Assembly (NCBI RefSeq): GCF_014640975.1
Contig: NZ_BMHO01000001.1
Location: 1,870,166-1,934,165 of the forward strand
Source of the DNA: Microbacterium faecale
Lineage (GTDB): Bacteria > Actinomycetota > Actinomycetes > Actinomycetales > Microbacteriaceae
Length of the DNA: 64,000 nucleotides
Reading direction: 5' to 3'
Both the position numbers and the translations under genes were made by a program. The notes under the pieces are model-generated. The model was not told the origin of the DNA, made no database searches, and saw nothing but the letters and a program-made list of their open reading frames with translations. Positions 53,228 through 58,573 of this stretch are shown one piece after another; the stretch's first letter is position 1, and every line of letters starts with the position of its first letter.

Positions 53228-54253
53228 TCAGAATCCGATGGCGGCGCGGTAGCGCGCCTTGTGGCCCGTGCGGATCCCCGACACGCTCGGCTTGTTCTCG
53301 TAGACGCCCGCGCCCCAGTTCCCCTCGACGAGCACGGGGCCGTCGTTCGTGACGACGACGTCCCATCCGGCGTACTGCACGTCGGGGTTGACGCGAGCCG
53401 CCTCGTCGACCAGGGCGATGGCCTCGGCGAAACGGGGCAGCTGGAAGTCCGCGATCCGGTAGCCGGTATCGGGATGTGCCTCGTGGACGTTCGCGTGAGA
53501 GTCGTATCCGGCGCTCATCGCGTGACCCGTATCGGGGTCGAGCATCGTATAGAAGCCGCCGTACGACATCTGGTCGCTGACCTCGCCGCGGCCGAACTTC
53601 TGGGCGATCGCGAGCATATGGACGTCGGTTCCGTCGAAGAACGCCGTAATGCGCGTGGTGTTGACGGTGCCGGGGCAGACGGCAGCGATGTCGTCGTGCT
53701 GCGCGATGACCTCTTCGAGCAGGATCTCGTCGCCCGCGATCAGCCGCGCGTGGAAAGCCGACCAGTCATCGATTTCCTCTGCGCGGTACCGTCGGACGCC
53801 GAGGCCCATGTGGCTGACCGGCACCTTCGCGATGACGGCGCCGTGCTGTTCGACGAAGGCGCGGACCTCCTCGGCGTTGCCGTCCTCGACGACGAGCCAG
53901 GCCCGCTTCAGGAAACGGTCGAACTGACGGTTGAAGGCGATCTTATCTTCGAAGATGCGACGACCGGCGGGGCGCGAGTATGCCTGCGCGAGCTGCATGG
54001 ACACGGGATGCGTCATGAAGGTGGCGCGCTCGGCGGCCGTGAGCGACGCGAAGTCGAAGTCGACGTAGTCCTGGAAGGCGACGTCCTTGCGGGCCGCCTG
54101 CCACAGCATGTCGACGACGACAGCGGGCACCGCCTTGCCGTGCTCGTCACGCACCTCCTTGGCGCGGTCGATGACGGCGCCGATGTCGATGCGTCGGGCG
54201 CGCTCGGCGAGGTAGCGAAGTTTCGGTCCGAGGGCGAGGCCGTTCGCGGGCAT
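53228..54253 (-). CDS. ATP-grasp protein of the sugar-transfer-associated type
   Basis: A 341-residue ATP-grasp enzyme. The N-terminal helical region (to about residue 85) is followed by the grasp fold: FEDKIAFNRQFDRFLKRAWLVV, VIAKVPVSHMGLGVRRY with a nucleotide-contacting lysine, EILLEEVIAQHDDIAAV, and WDVVVTNDGPVLVEGNWGAG, whose acidic residues bind magnesium. It resembles ATPgrasp_ST proteins found with capsule and cell-surface sugar genes. The acceptor is unknown. GGAGGATCC precedes ATG 54253. Its -10 element (TAGACT, 54326-54331) overlaps that of the divergent racemase gene. Confidence 0.8.
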   Translation of the reverse strand: MPANGLALGPKLRYLAERARRIDIGAVIDRAKEVRDEHGKAVPAVVVDMLWQAARKDVAFQDYVDFDFASLTAAERATFMTHPVSMQLAQAYSRPAGRRIFEDKIAFNRQFDRFLKRAWLVVEDGNAEEVRAFVEQHGAVIAKVPVSHMGLGVRRYRAEEIDDWSAFHARLIAGDEILLEEVIAQHDDIAAVCPGTVNTTRITAFFDGTDVHMLAIAQKFGRGEVSDQMSYGGFYTMLDPDTGHAMSAGYDSHANVHEAHPDTGYRIADFQLPRFAEAIALVDEAARVNPDVQYAGWDVVVTNDGPVLVEGNWGAGVYENKPSVSGIRTGHKARYRAAIGF

Positions 54254-54336: not shown

Positions 54337-55005
54337 ATGACCCCGTCCAAACTGGCGAACAGCCGCCCGCGCGTGCGCGTGTCGCGATCGGCGCTCGCGG
54401 ATAACATCGCTCGCGCACGGCAGAGCGAGCCGAGCTCCGCCGTGGATCTGCGTCGCGACGCGTGCGGGCACGGTGCCGCCATCGTCGCCGCCGCGGCGCG
54501 CGAGGCCGGCGTGACGACGGCGATCGTCGACGCGGGCGAACCGCCCCACGGGCTCGACGCCGTGACGGGCCGCGCGCTGTCACTCGAGGCTGTCTTCGGC
54601 ATCGACGGCGAGGGTGTCCCGGCGATGACGTTCGCCGCTCCGGTGCTGCAGACGAAGCCGCTCCTCGCCGGTGACGGCGTTTCGTACGGGTACCTGCATC
54701 GAGCCGAGAAGGCCACGCGCGTCGCTCTTGTCGCCGGTGGGTACGCGCAGGGCGTCGCCCGCGCGATCGGTTCGCGCGCGTCCGTGGTGATCGCCGGATC
54801 CGAGCGCCCGATCATCGGCCGCGTCGCGATGGACGTCTGCGTCGTCGACGTCGGGAACGCGCCCGTGAGCCCGGGGGACGAGGCCGTGTACTTCGGCAGC
54901 GCGGCGCCGCAGTCGCTCGCGCGATGGGCAGAGGCGAGCGGATGGACCATGCTCGAGCTCGTCGCGATCGTGGGCCTCGGAGCCGAGCGGGAAGAGACCC
55001 CGTGA
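54337..55005 (+). CDS. Alanine-racemase C-terminal-domain protein lacking the PLP lysine
   Basis: A 222-residue protein. Residues about 100-215 are an alanine-racemase C-terminal beta domain with the catalytic-tyrosine motif GDGVSYGY (Tyr117), the GGYAQG segment and GRVAMD (161-166). The N-terminal ~95 residues keep only a remnant of the barrel. RVRVSRSALADNIARAR is the first strand and helix. AVDLRRDACGHG (35-46) aligns with the canonical AVVKANAYGHG but has arginine (Arg39) in place of the PLP lysine. Most of the TIM barrel is missing. The gene overlaps the next by four bases, and that gene has the reciprocal loss. A leaderless TAGTCT precedes the ATG. Confidence 0.85.
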   Translation: MTPSKLANSRPRVRVSRSALADNIARARQSEPSSAVDLRRDACGHGAAIVAAAAREAGVTTAIVDAGEPPHGLDAVTGRALSLEAVFGIDGEGVPAMTFAAPVLQTKPLLAGDGVSYGYLHRAEKATRVALVAGGYAQGVARAIGSRASVVIAGSERPIIGRVAMDVCVVDVGNAPVSPGDEAVYFGSAAPQSLARWAEASGWTMLELVAIVGLGAEREETP

Positions 55006-56078
55006 TCTCCGCCGAGCTGCGCGTCGATCTCGACCGGTTGCGACGCAACGTGCGGGCCGTGCGCGCCCGGATGGCTCCCGCCGAACTCCTCGTCGTCATC
55101 AAGGACGATGCGTACGCCCAGGGCGTCGAGCCGATCGTCACGGCGGCCCTCGACGCGGGTGCGGTCTGGTTCGGCGGCATCGACCTGCCGAGCGCGGTCC
55201 GCGCGAAGCGCACGGCGGGCGATCGCGCGCGCGTGCTGTGCTGGATGACGCTGGCGGAGGCGGAAGCCGAGGCCGCCCTCCGCTCAGGACTTGAGGTCGG
55301 CGTCGGCGACGCCGACTACCTCGATCGCATCGCGCGCGCGACCGAGACGACCGCGACGTGCGCCCGCGTGCACCTCAAGATCGACACCGGACTCCACCGC
55401 AACGGCGTCCGACCGGAAGCGTGGAACGCGTTCTGCGCCCGTGCTGCAGCGCTCGAGCGCGCGGGCCGGATCCGCGTGGTCGGTATCTGGACGCACATCG
55501 CCGAGGCGAGCGACGCGGAGGACGACGCCTCTCGGTCGGCCTTCGACGATGCGGTCACCGCGGCCGAGCGCGCGGGGCTCGACGCCGAGGTGCGGCACCT
55601 CTCCGCGAGCGCGGCCGCGTGGCACCGCCCCGAGTTCCGGTACGACCTCGTGCGGATCGGAGCCTTCTGTTACGGGATCCGATCCGAGCACGGCCCCGAC
55701 ATCCCCGGCGTCGCACCGATCTCTTCGCTCGTGGCGCGGGTGACGGAGCTCGGCGACGTCGCCACGGTCGGCGTCGGATCGGTGGACGGGTACCCGTCGT
55801 CCGCCGGCGGCCGGATCAGCGTCGCGACGCCCGGCGGAGTGCGCCAGCTCGTTCGGGTGGATCCGTTCTCGTCACTCGTCGAACTCTGGGATGGCGCAGC
55901 GATCGGCGACGAGGTCATCATGTTCGGCCCCGGCGACGCCGGGGAGCCGACACCCACTGATCTGGGTGAGGCGACCGGAACGGTGGGGGAGGAACCGTTG
56001 CTGCGCGTCTCGCCGCTGGTGCCGCGCGTCTACGACAAGGGCGCCTCCCCGAGCGGGGAGACGCCCTTGTCGAGGTGA
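55002..56078 (+). CDS. Alanine-racemase-like PLP protein lacking the C-terminal tyrosine
   Basis: A 358-residue racemase-fold protein. The PLP barrel is intact. Lys34 in VVIKDDAYAQG matches the PLP lysine, LKIDTGLHRNGV (127-136) supplies Arg133, and HLSASAAA and YDLVRIGAFCYGI follow. In the C-terminal beta domain, VGVGSVDG (256-263) stands where active enzymes have VSYG with the catalytic tyrosine, and LVRVDPF replaces GRVSMD. Alone it should be a poor racemase. With the overlapping upstream gene (GTGA) it would have both catalytic residues. The GTG start is fixed by this overlap. Substrate could be alanine or another amino acid of the cell wall. Confidence 0.85.
   Translation: MISAELRVDLDRLRRNVRAVRARMAPAELLVVIKDDAYAQGVEPIVTAALDAGAVWFGGIDLPSAVRAKRTAGDRARVLCWMTLAEAEAEAALRSGLEVGVGDADYLDRIARATETTATCARVHLKIDTGLHRNGVRPEAWNAFCARAAALERAGRIRVVGIWTHIAEASDAEDDASRSAFDDAVTAAERAGLDAEVRHLSASAAAWHRPEFRYDLVRIGAFCYGIRSEHGPDIPGVAPISSLVARVTELGDVATVGVGSVDGYPSSAGGRISVATPGGVRQLVRVDPFSSLVELWDGAAIGDEVIMFGPGDAGEPTPTDLGEATGTVGEEPLLRVSPLVPRVYDKGASPSGETPLSR
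56033..56072. terminator. 18-bp hairpin inside the 3' end of the racemase gene
   Basis: The arms 56033-56050 and 56055-56072 pair with one mismatch around loop GAGC. The structure ends six bases before the end of the racemase coding sequence and lies 18 bases from the stop of the convergent DUF7455 gene. It therefore encodes the last residues (DKGASPSGETPL) and probably also terminates both transcripts. Confidence 0.65.
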
Positions 56079-56089
56079 CGGGGTGTGCG

Positions 56090-56299
56090 TCAGTCCTGAA
56101 GCTTGGCGGTCTCGTCGTGCCAGTTCGTGGCCACTTCGCGCAGCTTCTCCTCGAACTTTCGTCCGTGGTGTGCGCAGTACAGCAACTCGCTGCCGCCGAC
56201 TTCGGCTGCGATGTAGGCCTGCGCTCCGCAGGCATCGCACCGGTCAAGGGCGGTCAGGCGGTGGGAGACAGAAGCTTCGGCTGTCGTAGTTGCAGTCAT
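56090..56299 (-). CDS. DUF7455-type small zinc-ribbon-like protein
   Basis: A 69-residue protein. One CxxC pair (RCDACGAQAYIAAEVGG) and a later CAHH (LLYCAHHGRKFEEKL) could together bind a metal. It ends in a charged helix. Short proteins of this design are widespread in actinobacteria next to the topoisomerase B gene. ATG 56299 was chosen over one 18 codons upstream because GGAGG precedes it at seven bases. Function unknown. Confidence 0.85.
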   Translation of the reverse strand: MTATTTAEASVSHRLTALDRCDACGAQAYIAAEVGGSELLYCAHHGRKFEEKLREVATNWHDETAKLQD

Positions 56300-56479
56300 C
56301 GGGTTGCCTCCTTCTCGGTTCGTCTCAGGTGAGGCGTTACTCCATACAACCACGGGACACCGTCAGGGATTCCCTGCAAGGCGCGTGTTTCGCGCTGGGC
56401 GTACGCGCCCGGCCTCAGTCGGCGCGACCCGGGTGTGTCCCCGGGGCGCTCGGAGCGTTCGAAGATAAGATCGAATCTT

Positions 56480-58573
56480 GTGACAGCCGAGTATTCCGCC
56501 CATCATCTCCAGGTCCTCGAAGGACTGGAGGCCGTCCGTAAGCGGCCGGGAATGTACATCGGGTCGAACGGATCGCCGGGGCTCATGCACTGCCTGTGGG
56601 AGATCATCGACAACGCGGTCGACGAGGCTGTCGCGGGCAACGGCGACCGAATCGTCGTGGTCCTCCGCGAGGACGGCAGCGTCGAGGTGCAGGACAGCGG
56701 TCGCGGCATCCCCGTTGACGTCGAACCGCGCACGGGGCTGACCGGCGTCGAGGTCGTCTTCACGAAACTGCACGCCGGTGGAAAGTTCGGCGGTGGCTCG
56801 TACGCGGCCTCGGGCGGTCTGCACGGCGTGGGCGCGTCGGTCGTCAACGCGCTCAGCGAGCGTCTCGACGTCGAGGTCGACCGCGGCGGCAAGACGTACG
56901 CGATGAGCTTCCACCGCGGCGAACCCGGCGAGTTCACGGACGCGGGCGAACCGCGTCCTGACGCCCCCTTCGCTCCGTTCCGGAACAGGAGCGAGCTGCG
57001 CGTCGCCGGCAAGGCCAAGAAGGGCGTCAGCGGCACGCGCGTGCGCTATTGGGCGGACGGGCAGATCTTCACGAAGGACGCGGCGTTCCAGTACGACGAG
57101 CTCGTGACGCGAGCGCGCCAGACGGCGTTCCTCGTGCCGGGGCTGGAGATCGTCATCCGCGACGAGCGTCCCGACGCAGACCCCGATGGTGGGGTGCGCG
57201 AGACTTCCTACCGATACGAGGGCGGCCTCGGGGAGTTCGTCGAATTCCTGTCGACGGACGCGCCCGTCACCGACACGTGGCGCCTCGACGGCACGGGAAA
57301 CTTCACCGAGCGGGTGCCGACGCTGCAGCCGGACGGATCCATGATGTCGACCGAGGTCGAGCGCGAGTGCCGCGTCGACATCGCCCTGCGCTGGGGAACG
57401 GGCTACGACACGCACATGCGATCGTTCGTGAACATCATCGCGACACCCAAGGGGGGTACGCACCAGCAGGGCTTCGAACAGGAGCTGACGAAGCAGCTCC
57501 GCGCCGAGGTCGAGAAGAACGCGCGACGACTGAAGGTCGGCAGCGACAAGCTCGAGAAAGACGACGTCCTCGCGGGGCTCACGGCCGTGCTCAACGTCAG
57601 CATCCCGGAGCCGCAGTTCGAGGGACAGACGAAGGAGGTGCTGGGCACGCCCGCCGTGCGCAGCATCGTTGCCAAGGTCGTCCGCGAAGGGATGAAGGCG
57701 CGTTTCACGTCGACGAAGCGCGACGACAAGAACCAGGTCTCGATGCTGCTCGACAAGGTCGTCAGTGAGATGAAGGCGCGCGTCTCGGCGCGCGCCCACA
57801 AGGAGACGCAGCGTCGCAAGAACGCGCTCGAGTCATCGTCGCTGCCCGCGAAGCTCATCGACTGCCGGTCGAACGACATGTCGAACTCCGAGCTGTTCAT
57901 CGTCGAGGGCGATTCCGCCCTCGGCACCGCCCGCAAGGCGCGCGACAGCGAGTATCAGGCGCTGTTCCCGATTCGCGGCAAGATCCTCAACACGCAGAAG
58001 GCCTCGATCGGCGACATGCTGTCGAACGCCGAGTGCGCAGCGCTGATCCAGGTGGTCGGCGCCGGGTCGGGGCGCTCGTTCGACATCGACGCGGCGCGCT
58101 ACGGCAAGGTCATCATGATGAGCGACGCCGACGTTGACGGCGCGCACATTCGCACGCTGCTGCTGACGCTGTTCTACCGCTACATGCGGCCGCTCATCGA
58201 AGCAGGGCGGGTGTACGCCGCCGTTCCGCCGCTGCACCAGGTCATCGTGCAGCACCCCGGCTCGAAGCCCAATGAGACGATCTACACGTACAGCGACCGC
58301 GAGTTGACGGCACTGCTTGCCAAGCTGCGCAAACAGAACAAGAAGTGGCGAGAGCCGATCCAGCGCTACAAGGGCCTCGGCGAGATGGACGCGGATCAGC
58401 TCGCGGACACCACCATGTCGCGCGACGGCCGCCTCCTGCGCCGCGTGCGGATGGAAGACGCGGAGGCCGCCGGTCACGTCTTCGAGATGCTCATGGGCAA
58501 CGAGGTCGCCCCGCGCCGTGAATTCATCGTCCAGGGCGCGGCGCAGCTCGACAAGGAAGCGATCGACGCGTAG
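56480..58573 (+). CDS. parE: DNA topoisomerase IIA subunit B (ParE/GyrB-like)
   Basis: A 697-residue ATPase subunit of a type IIA topoisomerase. The GHKL ATP site has EIIDNAVDEAVAG, DSGRGIPVD and GGLHGVGASVVNALS. The transducer domain follows. The TOPRIM domain has ELFIVEGDSALGTAR and MMSDADVDGAHIRTLLL with the metal-binding acidic residues. It ends in a short C-terminal tail. Pairing with the nearby A subunit at 59913 points to a topoisomerase IV-like enzyme rather than the dnaA-linked gyrase. The GTG at 56480 follows TAAGAT (56466-56471) by eight bases. Confidence 0.93.
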   Translation: MTAEYSAHHLQVLEGLEAVRKRPGMYIGSNGSPGLMHCLWEIIDNAVDEAVAGNGDRIVVVLREDGSVEVQDSGRGIPVDVEPRTGLTGVEVVFTKLHAGGKFGGGSYAASGGLHGVGASVVNALSERLDVEVDRGGKTYAMSFHRGEPGEFTDAGEPRPDAPFAPFRNRSELRVAGKAKKGVSGTRVRYWADGQIFTKDAAFQYDELVTRARQTAFLVPGLEIVIRDERPDADPDGGVRETSYRYEGGLGEFVEFLSTDAPVTDTWRLDGTGNFTERVPTLQPDGSMMSTEVERECRVDIALRWGTGYDTHMRSFVNIIATPKGGTHQQGFEQELTKQLRAEVEKNARRLKVGSDKLEKDDVLAGLTAVLNVSIPEPQFEGQTKEVLGTPAVRSIVAKVVREGMKARFTSTKRDDKNQVSMLLDKVVSEMKARVSARAHKETQRRKNALESSSLPAKLIDCRSNDMSNSELFIVEGDSALGTARKARDSEYQALFPIRGKILNTQKASIGDMLSNAECAALIQVVGAGSGRSFDIDAARYGKVIMMSDADVDGAHIRTLLLTLFYRYMRPLIEAGRVYAAVPPLHQVIVQHPGSKPNETIYTYSDRELTALLAKLRKQNKKWREPIQRYKGLGEMDADQLADTTMSRDGRLLRRVRMEDAEAAGHVFEMLMGNEVAPRREFIVQGAAQLDKEAIDA

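What the first reader, a model, noticed from the sequence alone, without database searches (positions are those of the whole stretch)
54337..56078. Two overlapping racemase genes with reciprocal loss of catalytic residues
Alanine racemases are homodimers whose active site combines the PLP lysine of one subunit with the tyrosine of the other. Here the first protein keeps the tyrosine motif GDGVSYGY (Tyr117) and GRVAMD, but has Arg39 where the PLP lysine belongs and lacks most of the barrel. The second keeps Lys34 and Arg133 in an intact barrel, but has VGVGSVDG and LVRVDPF where the tyrosine and methionine motifs belong. The genes overlap by GTGA. Each lacks what the other has, so I infer an obligate heteromeric racemase, perhaps for a cell-wall amino acid other than alanine.
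Basis: partly seen in the sequence, partly recalled or inferred. Interest (0 to 1): 0.78.

Follow-up and report, generated by a model that had tools for sequence, protein, structure and literature searches.

The report
Two-subunit split alanine-racemase-like enzyme
Two overlapping genes each encode half of an amino-acid-flipping enzyme's working parts, and the same split is kept in related soil bacteria, so the two proteins very probably work only as a pair, perhaps making an unusual mirror-image amino acid for the cell wall.

Summary
ORF1 (54337-55005) and ORF2 (55002-56078) are alanine-racemase paralogues. In this family each active site takes some residues from one chain (cis) and some from the other (trans). 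ORF1 keeps the trans set (Y265', Y284', R290', R309', M312', D313') and has lost the PLP lysine and most of the barrel; ORF2 keeps the cis set (K39, Y43, R136, H166, S204, R219, G221) and has lost the tyrosine loop. This holds in 101 distinct pairs from at least ten Microbacteriaceae genera; 93 of 101 keep a 4-base gene overlap. Both genes are under purifying selection. In 366 Microbacterium genomes they are present or absent together, apart from two incomplete assemblies. Natural fusions and graded decay of ORF1's barrel occur in relatives. A separate ordinary alr is present, so the pair is probably not the D-alanine source. In ORF2 the specificity tyrosine (Y354) is Glu or Asp, suggesting a cationic substrate. 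D-ornithine for the cell wall is the leading guess; M. gubbeenense (L-lysine, yet ORF1 present) speaks against it. No activity is shown and no Tyr-Lys distance was measured. I found no description in the papers searched.

The parts
54337..55005 (+). ORF1 (222 aa): barrel-less subunit; remnant of the PLP-lysine region plus an intact C-terminal domain carrying the trans active-site residues
54451..54453 (+). Arg39 codon of ORF1 at the position of the PLP lysine (R in 73 of 101 pairs, otherwise A, D, T, E, P, S, L, N, G or a gap; K in none)
54685..54687 (+). Tyr117 codon of ORF1, equivalent of catalytic Tyr265' of Geobacillus Alr
   Evidence: 120/120; 41/41 named-locus ORF1s, 40 distinct
54829..54834 (+). 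Met165-Asp166 codons of ORF1 (equivalents of M312'-D313')
55002..55005 (+). 4-base overlap GTGA: ORF2 start and ORF1 stop; a 4-base overlap is kept in 93 of 101 distinct pairs
55002..56078 (+). ORF2 (358 aa): intact PLP barrel with the cis residues; degenerate C-terminal domain with the tyrosine loop deleted
55101..55103 (+). Lys34 codon of ORF2, PLP lysine (K39 equivalent)
55398..55400 (+). Arg133 codon of ORF2 (R136 equivalent)
55989..55991 (+). Glu330 codon of ORF2 at the place of Tyr354, the residue thought to restrict Alr to alanine
   Evidence: role of Tyr354 from PMC3485190 (passages)
53228..54253 (-). divergent neighbour, sugar-transfer-associated ATP-grasp protein (PF14397); beside the pair in many pair-bearing genomes but relatives also kept in pair-less ones
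56435..58573 (+). topoisomerase subunit B (ParE/GyrB type), syntenic neighbour of the pair in several genera; not part of the enzyme

Best explanation
ORF1 and ORF2 are the two obligate subunits of one PLP-dependent amino-acid racemase of the alanine-racemase fold. In ordinary Alr each chain gives its barrel (PLP lysine) to one active site and its C-terminal domain (catalytic tyrosine) to the partner's active site. After a gene duplication in or before the Microbacteriaceae, ORF2 kept the barrel half and ORF1 the C-domain half, so the ORF1-ORF2 complex has one composite site (Lys34 of ORF2, Tyr117 of ORF1) instead of two. ORF1's barrel then had no job and was progressively lost; in several lineages the subunits became fused. 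Shown here: the residue partition, linkage, co-occurrence, selection and fusions. Inferred: the complex, the two-base racemisation, and a substrate other than alanine. Likeliest substrate (inferred, under even odds): ornithine or a related diamino acid for the B-type peptidoglycan cross-bridge.
Against: No biochemical evidence. The partition is not absolute at every site: ORF1 still has Tyr at Y43 in 24 of 101, and ORF2 has Tyr at Y284' in 13, Asp at D313' in 27 and Arg at R290' in 2. In one record (L220) ORF2 is split over two frames. Substrate evidence is mixed: M. gubbeenense is reported as L-lysine type (PMC10757982) but has ORF1 (P0009, P0012); the Agromyces, Cryobacterium and Plantibacter genomes tested, which I recall as diaminobutyrate types, show only matches of full Alr length.
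Confidence: 0.85

Rival explanations
1. ORF2 works alone as a PLP enzyme that needs no trans tyrosine (for example a one-base racemase, aldolase or decarboxylase-like activity), and ORF1 is only a stabiliser or regulator.
Against: ORF1 keeps the catalytic and entryway residues that ordinary Alr supplies in trans (Y265', Y284', R290', R309', M312'), in 101 pairs and 120 relatives; a mere scaffold would not need them. ORF2 without ORF1 was not found in the loci read.
Confidence: 0.08
2. ORF1 pairs with the canonical Alr of the same cell and modulates D-alanine synthesis; ORF2 does something separate.
For: A canonical alr exists in the genome, and ORF1's C-domain is a good match to Alr (99 bits).
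Against: ORF1 tracks ORF2, not alr: 58 of the 64 pair-less genomes were searched and all 58 keep a racemase match at E <= 1e-30, 55 of them exactly one. ORF1 overlaps ORF2 in 93 of 101 pairs and is fused to ORF2 in several genomes.
Confidence: 0.04
3. The pair is a decaying remnant (pseudogene pair) of a former second racemase.
For: Both chains have lost domains or residues, the pair is absent from two groups of Microbacterium, and one record has ORF2 in two frames (L220).
Against: dN/dS 0.06-0.45 (ORF1) and 0.09-0.27 (ORF2), open frames and fixed catalytic residues across at least ten genera.
Confidence: 0.03

Closest known systems
Alanine racemase Alr (TIGR00492; Geobacillus, Streptomyces, M. 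tuberculosis structures)
   Different: Alr is a homodimer with both residue sets in each chain and two sites; here the sets are split between two genes, ORF1 has no barrel, and Tyr354 is replaced. Both ORFs score below the alr equivalog cut-off.
Lysine racemase Lyr and broad-specificity racemase Bar/Bsr
   Same: Same fold; the Alr Tyr354 is replaced (Thr in Lyr, Ala in Bar; PMC3485190, passages), here by Glu or Asp.
   Different: Lyr and Bar are homodimers with Lys and Tyr in one chain; sequence matches to 4dza and 4dyj are weaker than to actinobacterial Alr.
Enzymes that need a catalytically dead paralogue (prozyme of trypanosomal AdoMet decarboxylase, PMC5201418: search listing with the start of the abstract only; deoxyhypusine synthase and serine palmitoyltransferase are recalled)
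   Same: Duplicated enzyme turned into an obligate or activated heteromer with one incomplete subunit.
   Different: There the partner, as far as I recall, acts largely by allostery or keeps its fold; here the partner would supply a catalytic base and has lost most of its fold.
Intact second racemase of Herbiconiux gentiana (L283)
   Same: Branches inside the ORF2 clade and has Asp where Alr has Tyr354.
   Different: Keeps both Lys and Tyr in one chain, so it looks like the undivided form.

Membership tests
Alanine-racemase superfamily (PF01168 / PF00842, fold type III) | Barrel and C-terminal domain profiles over the curated cut-offs | tested here: met
   ORF2 PF01168 161.5 and PF00842 31.8 bits; ORF1 PF00842 99.3 bits, PF01168 only 13.5 (cut-off 24.1): met by ORF2 and by the pair, not by ORF1 alone for the barrel.
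Alanine racemase equivalog (TIGR00492 alr) | Score over the curated cut-off of 168 bits | tested here: not met
   ORF1 85.8, ORF2 127.4 bits.
Alanine racemase equivalog (TIGR00492 alr) | PLP lysine and catalytic tyrosine in one polypeptide | tested here: not met
Alanine racemase equivalog (TIGR00492 alr) | Tyr354, thought to restrict the pocket to alanine | tested here: not met
   Glu in 120/121 database ORF2s; Glu 93, Asp 7, gap 1 of 101 pairs.
Alanine racemase equivalog (TIGR00492 alr) | Interconverts L- and D-alanine as a homodimer | not testable with these tools
   Needs purified protein.
Lysine / broad-specificity racemases (Lyr, Bar) | Tyr354 replaced, larger pocket | tested here: inconclusive
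   Replaced, but by Glu/Asp rather than Thr/Ala (PMC3485190); pocket size not measured.
Lysine / broad-specificity racemases (Lyr, Bar) | Lys and Tyr on one chain, homodimer | tested here: not met
   Not on one chain; oligomer not tested.
Heteromer with a catalytically incomplete paralogue | Two paralogues, each missing catalytic residues the other has, co-inherited | tested here: met
Heteromer with a catalytically incomplete paralogue | Activity only in the complex | not testable with these tools
   Needs enzymology.

The most novel reading that the evidence does not exclude
A heterodimeric, single-site ornithine (or other diamino-acid) racemase of the alanine-racemase fold that supplies the D-diamino acid of the B2-type peptidoglycan cross-bridge in Microbacterium and relatives, evolved by complementary decay of a duplicated homodimer, with the stages of decay (dead barrel, deleted barrel, fusion) still present in living genera.
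Probability: 0.38. Interest if true: 0.86.

Novelty: new variant of a known kind. Interest (0 to 1): 0.74.

Why it matters
It is an unusually clean natural case of a homodimeric enzyme turned, it seems, into an obligate heteromer, with the two halves of one active site sorted to two genes along the chain boundary known from crystal structures, and with intermediate stages preserved in related genera. That makes a general question (how heteromers arise after duplication) testable with a simple assay. If the substrate is ornithine or another diamino acid, it would also supply a source of the D-diamino acid in B-type peptidoglycan, a trait used in the taxonomy of this family.

Tried and rejected
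Considered and dropped: (1) ORF2 as a self-sufficient racemase with Tyr at VGVGSVDG: the alignment puts that stretch at Tyr284', and the Tyr265 loop is deleted. Four ORF2s with a VSYG or GSYG string (L046, L049, L054, L057) were read: the string lies elsewhere and each has an ORF1. (2) The neighbouring ATP-grasp gene as an obligate partner: 305 of 366 Microbacterium genomes have a match at E <= 1e-20, some pair-bearing genomes (for example G009, G012, G015) have none and many pair-less ones keep relatives, so it is not diagnostic. (3) A wider spread in the order: of 218 genomes drawn from the order, 41 have a match at E <= 1e-62; the 22 newly fetched loci (L288-L309, six of them from this family: L288-L292 and L307) all encode racemases with both Lys and Tyr on reading; matches without a fetched locus were not read. 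Absence of the split pair outside the family is only as good as that sample and threshold.

Limits: co-occurrence was read by hand from the best E-values (ORF1 present if below 1e-45, ORF2 if below 1e-68), with the exceptions then read. Only the listed best 120 hits of 708 and of 1545 were used for residue counts. Searches counted 109 pairs; on checking, eight were truncated second copies of the same pairs, so the counts here are those (101 distinct pairs, 93 with overlap). In these pair sets ORF1 candidates were required to hold the Tyr motif and ORF2s to lack it, so the Tyr265' rows are by construction; fusions and the four ORF2s above were left out. For Agromyces, Cryobacterium and Plantibacter the matches were judged by length, not read. 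The structure models gave no coordinates. First alignments for folding were poor (A5, A7, A8: ORF1 rows aligned to ORF2's C-domain) and not folded; A6 was folded before I noticed that its ORF1-only rows were also misaligned.

Literature: searches listed no paper on such a split racemase or on the origin of D-ornithine in Microbacterium; the library is open-access PMC only. Search listings only, unless stated: passages were read in PMC10757982, PMC10978784, PMC6113628, PMC3485190 and PMC3146814; whole sections in PMC10757982 (section 14) and PMC10978784 (section 16).

Full report
WHAT IS THERE. ORF1 (54337-55005, 222 aa) and ORF2 (55002-56078, 358 aa) lie on the + strand and share GTGA. ORF1 has an intact Ala_racemase_C domain and a short leftover of the barrel around the PLP-lysine motif; ORF2 has an intact Ala_racemase_N barrel and a worn C-domain. 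Alignment with the canonical Alr of the same genome shows that ORF1 lacks most of the barrel, with Arg39 at the PLP-lysine site, and that ORF2 has the whole loop with the catalytic tyrosine deleted.

THE PARTITION. Papers on the family state that the active site joins barrel residues of one protomer to C-domain residues of the other, and name them (PMC3485190, PMC3146814, passages). I mapped 14 such positions. In 101 distinct ORF1-ORF2 pairs: ORF2 has K39, Y43, R136, H166 and S204 in 101/101, R219 and G221 in 100/101 (one gap, L220, whose ORF2 is split over two frames); ORF1 has Y265' 101/101 (by selection), Y284' 98 plus 3 Phe, R290' 101/101, R309' 100/101, M312' 101/101, D313' 95 plus 6 Asn. 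The opposite sets are lost, though not at every site in every protein: K39 in ORF1 is R in 73 and never K, but Y43 is still Tyr in 24; in ORF2 M312' is never Met, R290' is S or T in 95 and Arg in 2, Y284' is Tyr in 13, D313' is Asp in 27. The same split is seen in database relatives chosen by similarity alone: 120 ORF1s and 121 ORF2s, and in 41 of 41 ORF1s (40 distinct) of named loci. The one cis residue lost in both is Y354, which in Alr sits on the same chain as the lysine: it is Glu in 93 and Asp in 7 of 101 ORF2s.

LINKAGE, SELECTION, CO-OCCURRENCE. 93 of 101 pairs keep a 4-base stop-start overlap. In 37 comparisons within five groups of relatives dN/dS is 0.06-0.45 for ORF1 and 0.09-0.27 for ORF2. 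In 366 Microbacterium genomes the best E-values fall into two groups: ORF1 299 present and 67 absent, ORF2 300 present and 66 absent; both present 297, both absent 64. Three genomes with ORF2 only by threshold (G274, G275, G325) have an ORF1 on reading, two of them fused to ORF2; two with ORF1 only (G069, G284) are 68% and 72% complete. So no well-assembled Microbacterium genome was found with one gene alone. Among pair-bearing genomes only G223, G232, G243, G293 and G299 (72-94% complete) show a single match to the ORF2 profile; the others show a second one, not each checked to be alr. Of the 64 pair-less genomes, 58 (six of lower quality left out) were searched again: 58 of 58 keep a racemase match at E <= 1e-30, 55 of them exactly one.

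EVOLUTION. The pair sits beside parE in many of the loci read, in several genera. In the 30 pair-less Microbacterium genomes whose parE region was read, DUF7455 and parE lie next to each other; an ATP-grasp motif follows within the 1.5 kb flank in 15 of them. A ParE tree of 106 rows gives 7 parsimony changes of pair presence, with two separate pair-less groups inside Microbacterium (37 rows and 2 rows) (outside Microbacterium mostly the 5 kb beside parE were judged). ORF1 shows stages: a longer barrel without the lysine (genus g58, G325, L227), a remnant (Microbacterium, Leifsonia, Agreia), and the C-domain with a short leader (L095, L100, L107, L109). Natural fusions: five database proteins of about 485 aa, L069/L070, L067, and a 766-codon frame L227 with a longer dead ORF1 followed by ORF2. 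A tree of 46 rows puts all its ORF1s in one clade (100/96) and all its ORF2s in another (100/99) that includes a Herbiconiux copy still holding Lys and Tyr, with Asp at Y354. That copy looks like the undivided form.

SUBSTRATE. A canonical alr is elsewhere in the genome (G000:C2:202075-203145), so D-alanine is probably covered. Tyr354 is thought to restrict Alr to alanine and is Thr in lysine racemase and Ala in Bar (PMC3485190); here it is Glu or Asp, which could pair with a cationic side chain (inference). Microbacterium cell walls hold D-ornithine, L-lysine or diaminobutyrate (PMC10757982). Pair present: M. galbinum (D-Orn), M. schleiferi (Orn; pair elsewhere in the genome), M. testaceum (in a clade stated as D-Orn except M. 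enclense), M. maritypicum (D-Orn clade), and, by ORF1 and/or ORF2 among the named hits, six of the eight D-Orn species of the gubbeenense clade. Pair absent: M. invictum (Lys), M. lacticum (L-Lys recalled), M. paulum (same clade as M. lacticum) and M. oleivorans (type not found). Against: M. gubbeenense is L-Lys in the same paper but has ORF1 (P0009, P0012). Outside Microbacterium, Leifsonia, Labedella and Agreia have the pair; the Agromyces, Cryobacterium and Plantibacter genomes tested show only matches of full Alr length, although I recall them as diaminobutyrate types. The correlation is suggestive and small.

VERDICT. A vertically kept two-gene (sometimes fused) racemase of the Microbacteriaceae whose single active site is assembled from two proteins: 0.85. 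Diamino-acid substrate for the cell wall: about 0.4. It is a new variant of a known kind; no paper listed by the searches under Tried and rejected describes it.

Noticed in passing
window 53228-54253 (-): A sugar-transfer-associated ATP-grasp gene is divergent from the pair and beside it in many pair-bearing genomes; pair-less genomes often keep relatives of it, sometimes two in tandem (L151, L152, L164). It could be a ligase of the same cell-wall step.
   Followed up: partly
L283 (Herbiconiux gentiana): Two full-length racemases in tandem; the second has Lys and Tyr but Asp at the Tyr354 place and branches with the ORF2s.
   Followed up: partly
L220 (Microbacterium sp. Se63.02b): ORF2 is split over two reading frames in this record: a frameshift or a sequencing error.
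   Followed up: no
L080, L081 (genomes G047, G200): Open frames of about 785-900 codons whose last part is a diverged racemase: a possible long fusion protein in pair-less Microbacterium.
   Followed up: no
L294, L297, L306: A genus of another family in the order has a racemase with SYE at the catalytic tyrosine and GDE near the Tyr354 place; in G947 it stands beside a second racemase match elsewhere in the genome.
   Followed up: no
L153: A contig labelled Stenotrophomonas maltophilia P13 carries a Microbacterium-like parE region: probable contamination of that record.
   Followed up: no
L197, L198; genome G333: M. stercoris shows the region on two contigs with the same match scores, and so does G333 (8% contamination listed): duplication or assembly redundancy.
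   Followed up: no
window 56090-56353 (-): A small DUF7455 protein lies between the pair and parE and is still beside parE in the 30 pair-less genomes whose parE region was read.
   Followed up: no
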